From assembly GCF_025311495.1 (NCBI RefSeq), contig NZ_CP104398.1:1426001-1490000 (forward strand): a DNA stretch of 64,000 nt, read 5' to 3'. Below are positions 9,252-12,350 of this stretch, in pieces. The first letter of the stretch is position 1, and every line of letters begins with the position of its first letter. The notes under the pieces were generated by a model. It did not search any database and was not told the DNA's origin. It saw only the letters and a list, made by a program, of their open reading frames with translations. Both the position numbers and the translations under genes were made by a program. Origin of the DNA: Limosilactobacillus oris. GTDB lineage: Bacteria > Bacillota > Bacilli > Lactobacillales > Lactobacillaceae.

Positions 9252-9827
9252 TTGAAGATTGCTGCGATTGCAGGATCCAATGCGAACCATTCTTATAATC
9301 GAATGCTGTTAGAGTACATCGCGAAGGACTTTCGCGACACTGACGATGTTGATGTGATTGACATTCGCAAGGTTCCACTGTTTAACGAAAACTACAAGGG
9401 CAAGACACCGGACGTGGTAGCTGATATTGACCGCCGGGTAGCTGCGGCCGATGCGGTGATTATTGCCAGTCCCGAATACAACCACTCAATTACCTCCGCG
9501 CTAAAGAGTATGGTAGAGTGGCTTTCTTATGAGCTGCACCCGTTGGAGAACAAGCCCGTTATGATTATCGGGGCTTCGACCCACGAGCAGGGTTCTTCCC
9601 GTTCACAGGTTCAACTGCGGGATATCTTGATTTCTCCTGGGGTCAACGCCCACGTCTTCCAGGGGGAAGAATTCTTTATGAGCAACGTTGCCAGCTTGAT
9701 GGATAAGGATGGCAACATTACTGACCCAGGGACAATCAAATTCCTCGAAAAGTGCATGCGGGAATTTAAACCCTACGCGGCGGCGATTAACGGGATGGTT
9801 GCGAAAAAGGAGGAGGCAAATAACTAA
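9252..9827 (+). CDS. NAD(P)H-dependent FMN reductase, short paralogue
   Basis: This 191-residue flavodoxin-like FMN reductase (PF03358 type) starts KIAAIAGSNANHSYNRMLL, the phosphate-binding loop for FMN, and shows SPEYNHSITSALKSMVEWL, the typical flavin ring loop. The start is TTG 9252, placed well behind AAGGAAGTGA; an upstream GTG at 9213 precedes that site and is rejected. It overlaps the next gene by one base (TAATG) and is clearly paralogous to that gene's N-terminal half. The pair may form a heterodimer, which is inference. Confidence 0.88.
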   Translation: MKIAAIAGSNANHSYNRMLLEYIAKDFRDTDDVDVIDIRKVPLFNENYKGKTPDVVADIDRRVAAADAVIIASPEYNHSITSALKSMVEWLSYELHPLENKPVMIIGASTHEQGSSRSQVQLRDILISPGVNAHVFQGEEFFMSNVASLMDKDGNITDPGTIKFLEKCMREFKPYAAAINGMVAKKEEANN

Positions 9828-11074
9828 TGAAAATTTTAGCGCTTGTCGGAACGAACGCAAACTTCTCCTATAACCGGATTTTACTCCAGTTCATGAAGAA
9901 ACACTTCCAGCAGATGGCCGACATTGAAATTTACGAAATTAGCAAGTTGCCCGCTTTCGGGGTCGACGTCCCGCTGAGTGAGCAGACAGAGGTATGGAAA
10001 CTCAAGCAGAAAGTCAAGGCTGCGGATGGGGTGGTGTTCTCCACGCCAGAATACGACCACGGGATTCCAGCAGCCCTCAAGAGCGCGACGGAATGGTTAT
10101 CCTACCACACCGAAGTTTTGAAGCATAAGCCGGTGATGGTTGTTGGGGTTTCTTACGGACGGCAAGCCTCTGCCCGTTCGCAGGTTCAAATGCGGCAGAT
10201 TCTGATTTCGCCTGACTGTGATGCCAACCTCCTTCCCGGAAACGAAGTGCTGATCGGTGGTGCGAGCCGGGTCTTTTCTAAAGACGGCCGCTTGATCAAC
10301 GCCGAGATGCGTGACAACCTGGAAAAATGCTTTACGCACTTTATCGAATACATTCAAGTGTTTAAGAATATTACTAAGGAGGAAGCTGAGATGCCTATTA
10401 AACGCCCAACCATCAGTGATGCTTACATTAACTTCCCGACTGGCCGCTTGACTCTGAAGGAAGTTCAACAGATTTTCAGTACGATTCCGTTTGAAATTGA
10501 CCTAGTAGATAGCTCTGACCGCTTTGCTTGGTACTCAGATAAGCCAAATCGGGAACACGTCCGCAGCGTGGCTTCGCTGAACGAACCGGTTACGGAATGC
10601 CACCCGCCAAAGGCTGTTCCGATCGTTATGCAAATTATCAACAGCTTCCGTGATGGTAAGAAGGATGTTGTTACCCGGCCATTATGGATGAATGGCCACC
10701 GCTCTCTGATTCAATACTACGCCCTGCGCGATGTTGACGGCCACTACCTGGGGACGATCGAATTTACGGGGAGTGTTGAATACATCCTCAACCTGTTTGA
10801 AAATGGCGGCTGGGACCAGAATCCGGATGCGATGACTGGTGCTTCCAAGCACGATGATGCTCCAGCAGACGCGGCGGCACCCGTTGCTGATGCTTCAACT
10901 GGTGCTTCGGAATCCTCTGCTGACGATGACACTGCTAGCCCTGCGGAAGCCGCGGGAACGCCAGCTGCGGATAGCGAAGATGGCGACGACGCAACGACCG
11001 GCGCCTCCGAAAGTGGCAGTGTGGATGCTGACGAAGAAACTGCCGATGCTTCTACCGGTGCCTCTGAAAACTAG
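9827..11074 (+). CDS. Flavin reductase-PAS fusion with four predicted covalent-FMN sites
   Basis: This 415-residue protein has three parts. Residues 1-180 are an NAD(P)H:FMN reductase domain (GTNANFSYNRILL, STPEYDHGIPAALKSATEWL) like the preceding gene. Residues about 205-325 resemble the PAS-like C-terminal domain of DUF438 proteins, with CHPPK at 258-262, GHRSLIQYYALRD and YLGTIEF. Residues 330-415 form an acidic Ala/Asp/Ser-rich tail with four copies of DAxTGAS at D334, D355, D388 and D407. This is the ApbE flavinylation consensus (D-x-x-S/T-G-A-S/T), and an ApbE gene follows directly. No signal peptide or TM segment is present, so the protein should be cytoplasmic. The covalent FMN load is predicted, not shown. 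Confidence 0.85.
   Translation: MKILALVGTNANFSYNRILLQFMKKHFQQMADIEIYEISKLPAFGVDVPLSEQTEVWKLKQKVKAADGVVFSTPEYDHGIPAALKSATEWLSYHTEVLKHKPVMVVGVSYGRQASARSQVQMRQILISPDCDANLLPGNEVLIGGASRVFSKDGRLINAEMRDNLEKCFTHFIEYIQVFKNITKEEAEMPIKRPTISDAYINFPTGRLTLKEVQQIFSTIPFEIDLVDSSDRFAWYSDKPNREHVRSVASLNEPVTECHPPKAVPIVMQIINSFRDGKKDVVTRPLWMNGHRSLIQYYALRDVDGHYLGTIEFTGSVEYILNLFENGGWDQNPDAMTGASKHDDAPADAAAPVADASTGASESSADDDTASPAEAAGTPAADSEDGDDATTGASESGSVDADEETADASTGASEN
10826..11074 (+). repeat. Four-copy flavinylation-motif repeat within the reductase tail
   Basis: Codons for DAMTGAS, DASTGAS, DATTGAS and DASTGAS begin at 10826, 10889, 10988 and 11045. The threonines T337, T358, T391 and T410 would be the FMN acceptors. 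The unit extends to DAxTGASE in three of four copies. Spacers of 21, 33 and 19 residues are low-complexity Asp/Ala/Ser/Glu, suggesting flexible linkers that grew by duplication. Confidence 0.8.
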
Positions 11075-11076
11075 GG

Positions 11077-12000
11077 ATGGCAAGTGAATTGATGGCCCAG
11101 CAGCACAGCATGGTTCACCGGGCCCTGGGGACCAAAATTGTGCTGACGGTCTACGGGGACGAGTATTTTCCCCTGCTGAGCCAAGCGATGAAGATGATTG
11201 ATGGCTACGAGGACCGGCTGACGGTCAACCGGCCGGTCTCCGAAGTGATGGCGGTCAACCAGGCTGCCGGGCGGACCCCTAAATTAGTGTCGCCGACGAC
11301 CTATGAACTGATCAAGCTGGCGGTTCATTATAGTCGGGGGAATTTTGGCTTCAATGCCCTGATCGGCCCGCTGGTAAAGCTGTGGAAAATCGGTTTTACT
11401 GGGGCGAATGTTCCCAGTGACCGGGCGATTAAGGACCGGCTCCGGCTCATTGATCCCTACCAGGTGCTGCTGGATGATGATAACCGGACTGTCTACCTCG
11501 AGCAGCCGGGGATGGAATTGGACCTGGGCGGGATCGCAAAGGGCTACATTGCCGACCGGGTCCGGGACTTTTGGCTGGCTCAGGGAGTTCCTGCTGGGAT
11601 CATTAACCTGGGCGGCAACCTGGTTTTTGTCGGTCAATCACCCCGGCGAGCAGACGGACAATGGATTATTGGTGTCCAGGACCCGCAGCTCAAGCGGGGA
11701 CATGACCTGGAAACGGTTCGCCAGCCGGCATGCTCGGCGGTGACCTCGGGGATTTACGAACGCTTCCTGGTGAAGGACGGGCGGCGTTATCACCACCTTT
11801 TGGATCCCCGGACTGGCTACCCGCTGGAGACCGACCTTAGCAGCGTAACGGTCTTTACTGACCAGTCGGTGCTGGGTGAAATCGAGGCCAAACGGCTCTT
11901 CTTTAACGGGGCGCCGTTAGCCGGCTGGGCGAGTCACCCGGGCAACCGGGGGGCGGTTTTTATTCACAATGACGAACGCGTCGAAAATATAAATATTTAA
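11077..12000 (+). CDS. apbE: Cytoplasmic ApbE-type FMN transferase
   Basis: This 307-residue protein belongs to the ApbE family, which moves FMN from FAD onto a Thr or Ser in target proteins. Family motifs seen are LDLGGIAKGYIAD (149-160), INLGGN (176-181) and HHLLDPRTGYP (239-249). It lacks a signal peptide and lipobox, unlike exported ApbE, so it should act in the cytoplasm, where its presumed target, the preceding protein, also lies. The usual C-terminal metal-site segment of the form DALxT is GEIEAKRLFFNG here (267-278), with Glu for Asp and Lys for Thr. The gene starts two bases after the previous stop with only AGGG directly before it; ATG 11092 is an alternative start. Confidence 0.88.
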   Translation: MASELMAQQHSMVHRALGTKIVLTVYGDEYFPLLSQAMKMIDGYEDRLTVNRPVSEVMAVNQAAGRTPKLVSPTTYELIKLAVHYSRGNFGFNALIGPLVKLWKIGFTGANVPSDRAIKDRLRLIDPYQVLLDDDNRTVYLEQPGMELDLGGIAKGYIADRVRDFWLAQGVPAGIINLGGNLVFVGQSPRRADGQWIIGVQDPQLKRGHDLETVRQPACSAVTSGIYERFLVKDGRRYHHLLDPRTGYPLETDLSSVTVFTDQSVLGEIEAKRLFFNGAPLAGWASHPGNRGAVFIHNDERVENINI

Positions 12001-12007
12001 AATGGGG

Positions 12008-12052
12008 GACGGCCGCTGAGCACTAGCTGTATGCTTGGCGGCCGTCTTTTTT
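12008..12052 (+). terminator. Terminator after apbE
   Basis: GACGGCCGC pairs with GCGGCCGTC, followed by six T. It closes the flavin operon. Confidence 0.92.
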
Positions 12053-12075: not shown

Positions 12076-12104
12076 TTGCTTAATTTGAATAAATGTAATA
12101 TGAT
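12076..12104 (+). promoter_or_regulatory. serS promoter
   Basis: TTGCTT (12076-12081) and TATGAT (12099-12104) with 17-base spacing, immediately before the T-box leader. Confidence 0.7.
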
Positions 12105-12109
12105 AATGG

Positions 12110-12337
12110 CAAAATCAAACACGGAAGCATTTCAAGTAGGTTATTCAGAGAGGCCGCGGCTGGTGTGAGCGGCTGACCGAAACTCCGGTGCTGTTAAATG
12201 TGGGCGGGTAATGCCGCACGGCGGATGGCCGTTATCCATCACGAGGGTGACAGTTTGACTGTCGAACTTGGGTGGTACCGCGGAACTAAGAGCCATTTCG
12301 TCCCAAAATTTTTGAGGATGGAATGGCTCTTTTCGTT
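12110..12337 (+). promoter_or_regulatory. T-box riboswitch of serS
   Basis: The leader carries the T-box GGGTGGTACCGCGG at 12270-12283 and a Stem I with the GGCTGGTGTGAG type loop near 12158. A terminator follows (AAGAGCCATT / AATGGCTCTT then T, about 12288-12334). A UCC serine triplet at 12184-12186 is the likely specifier, which fits serS downstream. Uncharged tRNA-Ser would release expression. Confidence 0.9.
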
Positions 12338-12350
12338 AGGAGGAATTCAG

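What the first reader, a model, noticed from the sequence alone, without database searches (positions are those of the whole stretch)
9252..12000. Cytoplasmic multi-flavin reductase system: reductase pair plus dedicated ApbE
Seen: two paralogous FMN reductases and an ApbE homologue in one overlapping operon closed by a terminator. The second reductase adds a PAS-like CHPPK domain and a flexible acidic tail with four DAxTGAS motifs. Known: ApbE attaches FMN to Thr/Ser in D-x-x-S/T-G-A-S/T, mostly in exported or membrane proteins such as NqrC and RnfG. Inference: here an all-cytoplasmic protein would carry up to four covalent FMN plus a bound FMN and a PAS cofactor, acting as an NAD(P)H-fed electron wire or buffer. 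I do not know of a description of this architecture.
Basis: partly seen in the sequence, partly recalled or inferred. Interest (0 to 1): 0.88.

Follow-up and report, generated by a model that had tools for sequence, protein, structure and literature searches.

The report
Flavin reductase with tethered-flavin tail
A lactic acid bacterium carries a small operon for a two-part NADH-driven flavin enzyme whose loose tail has four tags where a dedicated partner enzyme should attach vitamin B2-derived flavins, and the same kind of arrangement, with one to seven tags, recurs in many relatives.

Summary
In a Limosilactobacillus oris-like genome, window 9252-12000 encodes FMN_red, FMN_red-PAS_10-tail and ApbE, then a strong hairpin terminator. 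The tail has four D-x-x-T-G-A-S motifs; 100,000 shuffles of it never gave more than two. In 17 Limosilactobacillus rows the fixed motif positions are 99% conserved, linkers 55%. The ApbE is the only one in the genome and has no signal peptide. Corrections: the FMN acceptor should be the last serine of each motif (S340, S361, S394, S413), not the listed threonines; and close precedents exist. Huang 2024 showed ApbE-flavinylated FMN_red with C-terminal extensions in Lactococcus. Valladares 2015 described the FRedA/FRedB heterodimer with a PAS partner, sometimes fused, in H2O2 production, without mention of ApbE. New here: both lines join in one Lactobacillales family. The PAS (or the reductase) carries 1-7 motifs, stands alone, or is fused to FMN_bind and a fumarate-reductase-like domain; a small second protein of Limosilactobacillus carries the same tag. 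Against: in some families outside Lactobacillaceae the repeats are DxxSSAS-like although ApbE stays. Best reading: an NADH-fed heterodimeric flavin reductase passing electrons to covalently tethered FMNs. Flavinylation and the final acceptor are untested.

The parts
9252..9827 (+). FMN_red protein (FRedA-like partner), 191 aa, inferred TTG start, no motif
   Evidence: PF03358 E=3e-36; a separate FMN_red gene sits next to 91 of 91 FMN_red-PAS genes counted
9827..11074 (+). FMN_red-PAS_10-tail protein, 415 aa (FRedB-like)
   Evidence: PF03358 7e-32 at aa 1-145; PF13596 1.8e-14 at aa 214-313
10817..11071 (+). acidic low-complexity tail, aa 331-415, net charge -21; disorder inferred from composition, not modelled
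   Evidence: linker columns 55% conserved against 90% in aa 1-330
10826..10846 (+). flavinylation motif 1 DAMTGAS, predicted acceptor S340
10889..10909 (+). flavinylation motif 2 DASTGAS, predicted acceptor S361
10988..11008 (+). flavinylation motif 3 DATTGAS, predicted acceptor S394
11045..11065 (+). flavinylation motif 4 DASTGAS, predicted acceptor S413
11077..12000 (+). cytosolic ApbE (FAD:protein FMN transferase), 307 aa, the only ApbE in the genome
   Evidence: PF02424 2.5e-66; single genome match; no hydrophobic N-terminus; no lipobox in the L. oris orthologue
12004..12052 (+). intrinsic terminator (hairpin 12004-12050, six T)
   Evidence: -31.2 kcal/mol, z -5.4

Best explanation
The operon makes a cytosolic NADH-driven flavin-reductase heterodimer (FRedA/FRedB type). 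The FRedB subunit carries a PAS domain and a disordered tail. The co-encoded ApbE attaches FMN from FAD to the last serine of each tail motif. The dimer's non-covalently bound FMNs take hydride from NADH and reduce the tethered tail FMNs, which replace free FMN as the electron acceptor. The swinging tail then passes electrons on: to oxygen (H2O2), to a fumarate-reductase-like domain where one is present, or to other tagged proteins. Shown by sequence: genes, motifs, selection on motifs, signal-less ApbE, modular variants in relatives. Inferred: FMN attachment, disorder of the tail, electron path, acceptor.
For: Motif enrichment and selective conservation. A signal-less ApbE that is the genome's only one; its L. 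oris orthologue lies in a clade of 32 rows that are all from FRed/PAS loci (support 99/97), apart from lipoprotein ApbEs (100/100). 67 of 67 Lactobacillaceae genomes in which I read a canonical motif in a PAS or FMN_red protein have ApbE, against 252 of 396 overall (not corrected for kinship). G217 has a 44%-identical PAS without motif and no ApbE. Tail number and position vary: up to six motifs on a stand-alone PAS, five or seven on FMN_red with a motif-free PAS next door (L123, L127, L128). Natural fusions to FMN_bind and FAD_binding_2 occur with either FMN_red type (L019/L022; L104), which points to onward electron delivery. Closest enzymes: FRedA/B uses NADH and FMN or FAD and yields H2O2 (PMC4500961); Lactococcus FMN_red tails are flavinylated by their ApbE in E. 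coli (PMC11334425).
Against: No biochemistry on this protein, and no structure model (job never placed). Huang et al. explain such tails as securing the enzyme's own FMN, which needs no relay. All four acceptors are Ser, which ApbE uses less well than Thr (PMC12052999). Fourteen of 91 FMN_red-PAS proteins have only DxxSxAS and one neither form, though ApbE is near. Motif-free stand-alone PAS proteins exist too, 14 of 53 counted, one of them in this genome (L146). No acceptor gene lies in the operon, and the only two ORFs of 80 aa or more with an in-frame canonical motif in this genome are this protein and a 126-aa one, so no motif-bearing FMN_bind reductase is there.
Confidence: 0.5

Rival explanations
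1. Cofactor leash: the tail FMNs only anchor the reductase's own weakly held FMN. The tethered flavin docks into the FMN_red active sites, and extra motifs are redundancy.
For: Huang et al. proposed this for Lactococcus FMN_red. L. johnsonii FRedA/B binds FMN weakly (KD about 2 uM) and is purified part-filled, 0.58 FMN per dimer (PMC4500961).
Against: Motif number (up to 6-7) exceeds the two sites per dimer. Tails occur on stand-alone PAS proteins with ApbE and no FMN_red found in the fetched stretch (L084, L085, L089, L092, L094) and on a small protein without FMN_red.
Confidence: 0.28
2. Oxygen-handling or signalling module: the flavinylated PAS tail senses redox state and controls FRedA/B assembly and H2O2 output, rather than carrying catalytic current.
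For: Purified LjPAS slows formation of the active FRedA/B complex, and its gene is expressed less without oxygen (PMC4500961).
Against: LjPAS was made in E. coli and the text has no occurrence of ApbE, so if it carries motifs it was probably unmodified; whether it does was not testable here. Repeated motifs suit capacity better than sensing (inference).
Confidence: 0.15
3. Flavin store: the tail holds FMN as a covalent reserve without redox role.
For: Many sites on a cheap tail.
Against: The modification is called irreversible in the review abstract (listing); association with FMN_red pairs and with reductase fusions.
Confidence: 0.03
4. The motifs are low-complexity coincidence and are not modified.
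For: Tail is rich in A, D, S, T and G.
Against: 0 of 100,000 shuffles reach four; 99% motif against 55% linker conservation; ApbE nearby in many loci.
Confidence: 0.04

Closest known systems
ApbE-associated flavinylated FMN_red proteins of Lactococcus (Huang et al. 2024, PMC11334425; passages and sections 5, 6 and 13 read)
   Same: FMN_red domain, unstructured C-terminal extension with the motif, serine acceptor, apbE co-localised; flavinylation shown with cognate ApbE in E. coli
   Different: One to two motifs; 'PAS' and 'heterodimer' do not occur as words in the main text (supplements not seen); covalent FMN thought to sit in the enzyme's own site. Here four motifs beyond a PAS domain, and a second FMN_red gene
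FRedA/FRedB heterodimer with LjPAS, L. johnsonii (Valladares et al. 2015, PMC4500961; abstract, passages, sections 18 and 26 read)
   Same: Two adjacent paralogous FMN reductases and a PAS_10 partner; the paper notes fusion of PAS to FMN reductase in other lactobacilli
   Different: The main text has no occurrence of ApbE or 'covalent'. Whether LjPAS itself carries motifs was not testable here
Hydroxycinnamate reductase HcrA/HcrB (PMC10295242; passages read) and NADH:cinnamate reductase CrdA/CrdB of Vibrio ruber (recalled; not listed)
   Same: An FMN_red protein paired with a larger flavoenzyme that has its own FMN_red domain; Crd (recalled) also carries ApbE-attached FMN
   Different: The window protein has no FAD_binding_2 or FMN_bind domain; relatives L019, L022, L104, L105, L108 do
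Soluble fumarate reductase of Klebsiella with cytosolic ApbE (through review PMC12052999; passages and section 8 read)
   Same: Cytosolic ApbE modifying a cytosolic enzyme
   Different: To my recall a single FMN in a folded domain rather than a multi-site tail
Multi-flavinylated FMN_bind-repeat proteins (PMC10339131 seen in a search listing only; PMC11334425 passages)
   Same: Several covalent FMNs on one chain
   Different: Folded FMN_bind repeats, generally predicted outside the cytosol

Membership tests
ApbE flavinylation substrate | D-x-x-[ST]-G-A-[ST] motif | tested here: met
   four copies; selection
ApbE flavinylation substrate | ApbE encoded in the genome | tested here: met
   one ApbE, next gene
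ApbE flavinylation substrate | covalent FMN on the motif | not testable with these tools
   needs mass spectrometry or UV gel
ApbE-associated FMN_red (Huang 2024) | FMN_red domain with C-terminal extension bearing one to two motifs | tested here: inconclusive
   extension present, but behind a PAS domain and with four motifs
ApbE-associated FMN_red (Huang 2024) | apbE co-localised | tested here: met
   next gene
ApbE-associated FMN_red (Huang 2024) | tail close to the flavin pocket in a model | not tested
   structure job not accepted, machine busy
FRedA/FRedB-PAS system | two adjacent paralogous FMN_red genes | tested here: met
   in relatives 91 of 91 loci counted
FRedA/FRedB-PAS system | PAS_10 partner, free or fused | tested here: met
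   fused, PF13596 1.8e-14
FRedA/FRedB-PAS system | NADH oxidation with H2O2 formation by a heterodimer | not testable with these tools
   needs enzyme assay
HcrB/CrdB-type reductase | FAD_binding_2 catalytic domain | tested here: not met
   no such domain in the window protein
Multi-FMN FMN_bind proteins | FMN_bind domains | tested here: not met
Lipoprotein-type ApbE | signal peptide with lipobox | tested here: not met
   (L. oris orthologue); separate clade

The most novel reading that the evidence does not exclude
Lactic acid bacteria use covalent FMN tags on disordered tails as an intracellular electron-routing system: a soluble multi-flavin wire (PAS or reductase tail, one to seven FMNs), charged by an NADH-driven heterodimer and discharged into oxygen, fumarate-reductase-like domains or other proteins bearing the same tag, such as the small tagged protein of Limosilactobacillus. 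It would be a cytosolic counterpart of multihaem cytochromes built without any folded flavin domain for the carried flavins.
Probability: 0.25. Interest if true: 0.85.

Novelty: new variant of a known kind. Interest (0 to 1): 0.64.

Why it matters
Huang et al. find their results consistent with ApbE flavinylation serving mainly to prevent flavin loss in the extracytosolic space (PMC11334425), and an earlier survey left out genes without a signal peptide (PMC8238504 passages). A conserved cytosolic system with many sites per chain would need another reason. It also gives a testable role to the PAS partner of the H2O2-forming reductase of lactobacilli, and raises the question whether that partner was studied in an unmodified state. 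It would help explain signal-less ApbEs in this order.

Tried and rejected
Chance motifs: rejected. Another substrate for the only ApbE: a pattern scan of the whole genome (16 sites) read in frame gave only two ORFs of 80 aa or more with the motif, this protein and a 126-aa protein at G000:C1:538669-539046; so the tail is the main but not the only candidate. The 16 sites were fewer than the 19 of the reversed-pattern control, so a single site means little; the small protein counts because its tag recurs in 14 of 15 tailed homologues. Long PAS proteins without FMN_red (340 aa or more, DUF438-like by length, not checked by Pfam) as members: rejected, 0 of 23 have motifs. Spread outside Lactobacillales: of the 29 best PAS loci of a Bacillota sample (398 genomes, 120 with a hit; the other hits were not read) none had a motif or FMN_red. 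One exception elsewhere is a Bifidobacteriaceae MAG contig (L024), whose ApbE falls inside the lactobacillus clade: transfer or misbinning. Identity of the small tagged protein: resembles HesB/YneR proteins by recall; no Pfam or NCBIfam hit; hit to HI1723 (ErpA by recall) only at E=0.6, below unrelated chains; structure model pLDDT 44, not used. A plasmid search found only PAS relatives under 60% identity. Rfam found nothing in the window at gathering cut-offs.

In-print check: the listings of full-text searches in an open-access library showed no paper on a multi-motif tail of a PAS or FMN_red-PAS protein; subscription papers and supplements were not covered.
Full report
What is there. The window lies in a 2.0-Mb genome close to Limosilactobacillus oris: the L. 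oris DSM 4864 locus matches the query protein at 100% in the best segment. Three genes run on the + strand from 9252 to 12000, between an RNA methyltransferase-like gene on the other strand and a seryl-tRNA-synthetase-like gene (my reading of the translations). Pfam assigns FMN_red, FMN_red plus PAS_10, and ApbE. A strong hairpin with a T run follows. None of the three shows a hydrophobic N-terminus or membrane stretch.

The tail. Residues 331-415 are rich in Ala, Asp, Ser, Thr and Gly, with net charge -21, and hold four copies of the ApbE motif. Shuffling the tail gave at most two copies in 100,000 trials, mean 0.019. In the 17 Limosilactobacillus-type rows of alignment A1 (20 of 24 proteins aligned, three Secundilactobacillus rows set aside) the 20 fixed motif positions of the window are 99% conserved, linker positions 55% and residues 1-330 90%. 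All 23 loci of the first search keep at least one motif in the tail; the 19 Limosilactobacillus-type ones have four (16), three (2) or five (1). The window's copies differ at synonymous sites in 19 of 30 comparisons. By the published rule the FMN goes to the last residue, here always Ser (PMC12052999 section 8).

The ApbE. It is the only ApbE in the genome. Among 53 ApbE rows from FRed/PAS loci (51 without repeats) none matches a lipobox pattern. Of 20 comparison ApbEs, the ten of the top-scoring 360-aa class all have a hydrophobic N-terminus and 8 of 10 match the pattern; the ten shorter ones have neither, and their gene neighbours were not read. In a tree of 61 ApbEs (the window type stands as L. 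oris L002), one clade of 32 rows (99/97) is wholly from FRed/PAS loci, and the lipoprotein type is a clade of its own (100/100). The FRed-linked label as a whole needs six changes on the tree, so linked ApbEs are not one clade.

The family. A PAS model from these proteins, searched in 396 Lactobacillaceae genomes, matched 112 at E<=1e-20; a broader one matched 157 of 295 genomes of the order at 1e-15. Both totals include long PAS proteins of the DUF438 kind. I read 167 PAS ORFs in 162 of the fetched loci. Of 91 FMN_red-PAS proteins (two further fused to FMN_bind and FAD_binding_2), 76 have canonical motifs, 14 only DxxSxAS forms, one neither. Of 53 stand-alone PAS proteins the figures are 36, 3 and 14. 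Of 23 long ones none has a motif. A separate FMN_red gene is next to 91 of 91 FMN_red-PAS genes. ApbE lies within 1.5 kb on the same strand for 83 of 129 genes with motif-like tails; about 3.4-kb loci are often too short to tell. Canonical motifs per PAS tail run from one to six; there are seven in the two-PAS protein of L024 and seven on FMN_red tails.

Permutations. Stand-alone PAS with five or six motifs and ApbE next door (L084, L085, L089, L092, L094). The tail on FMN_red with a motif-free PAS beside it (L123, five; L127 and L128, seven). One motif on FMN_red, ApbE, motif-free PAS (L150, L155), which recalls the Lactococcus arrangement. FMN_red-PAS-tail-FMN_bind-FAD_binding_2 as one chain (L019, L022). 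FMN_red-FAD_binding_2-FMN_bind as the partner gene, followed by FMN_red-PAS with one motif and ApbE (L104, L105, L108). That the tail changes place while the other parts stay together suggests that it serves the complex, not one fold.

Co-occurrence. All 67 Lactobacillaceae genomes in which I read a canonical motif in a PAS or FMN_red protein have ApbE, against 252 of 396 overall (Fisher 1.7e-15). Relatives are not independent, and 67 is a lower bound, since not every hit was read (G162 and G237, for instance, were not). In a further check 55 of 56 chosen genomes had ApbE; the one without, G217, has a 44%-identical PAS with no motif.

Against the simple reading. Gly to Ala still allowed about half flavinylation in Klebsiella (PMC12052999), so these may still be substrates, or may be losing the modification. 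L227 has only HAVSGAS and NAVSSAS.

A second tagged protein. In the same genome a 126-aa protein ends in DASTGAS plus two residues. It had a match in 187 of 396 Lactobacillaceae genomes. I read the 30 best and three from the first search: 14 of 15 tailed ones, all Limosilactobacillus-type, keep the motif (one has DASTSAS), while 18 of 18 untailed ones of about 100 aa from other genera lack it. Second copies in Limosilactobacillus genomes were not examined. In 3 of 23 loci (L005, L007, L009) it is encoded 1.7-4.2 kb from the operon on the other strand. Its fold is not established.

Mechanism. L. johnsonii FRedA/B is a heterodimer that uses only NADH, needs both subunits to bind FMN (KD about 2 uM), takes FMN or FAD as acceptor and yields H2O2 by way of superoxide (PMC4500961). 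Covalent FMNs next to such an enzyme would turn a diffusing acceptor into a tethered one. I rate this relay at 0.5, a cofactor leash at 0.28, regulation at 0.15. Attachment of FMN itself I think likely, given the Lactococcus experiment.

Novelty. Flavinylated FMN_red with a C-terminal extension is in print, and so are FRedA/B with PAS, PAS-FMN_red fusions and cytosolic ApbE. In the searches named under Tried and rejected I found no description of the multi-site tail on the PAS module, of the union of these systems, or of the tagged small protein. So: a new variant of a known kind.

Noticed in passing
G000:C1:538669-539046 (L033, L157), outside the window: 126-aa HesB/YneR-like (by recall) protein with a C-terminal DASTGAS tag; tailed homologues in Limosilactobacillus mostly keep it
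   Followed up: partly
L225, L231, L238, L245, L249, L257, L258, L262-L266, L272, L273: FMN_red-PAS tails with DxxSxAS repeats instead of DxxSGAS while an ApbE gene stays near; possibly a variant recognition motif
   Followed up: partly
L024 4992-7629: Bifidobacteriaceae MAG contig (58% GC, next to a ribF-like gene by my reading) with a two-PAS, seven-motif protein and an ApbE nested among lactobacillus ApbEs
   Followed up: partly
L022, and L078 8718-9693: ApbE near the Secundilactobacillus fusion gene reads as two pieces; the same protein's tail shows decayed motifs (DTTTAAS, DATTSAS)
   Followed up: no
window 12100-12340: Leader before the seryl-tRNA synthetase-like gene looks like a T-box by eye (ggtggtaccgcgg); Rfam gave no match at gathering cut-offs
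   Followed up: no
G000:C1:998105-999415 (L075, L076): FAD_binding_2-like protein (471-aa frame), 37% identical to the Secundilactobacillus reductase domain, no canonical motif found there; a possible acceptor enzyme in this genome
   Followed up: no
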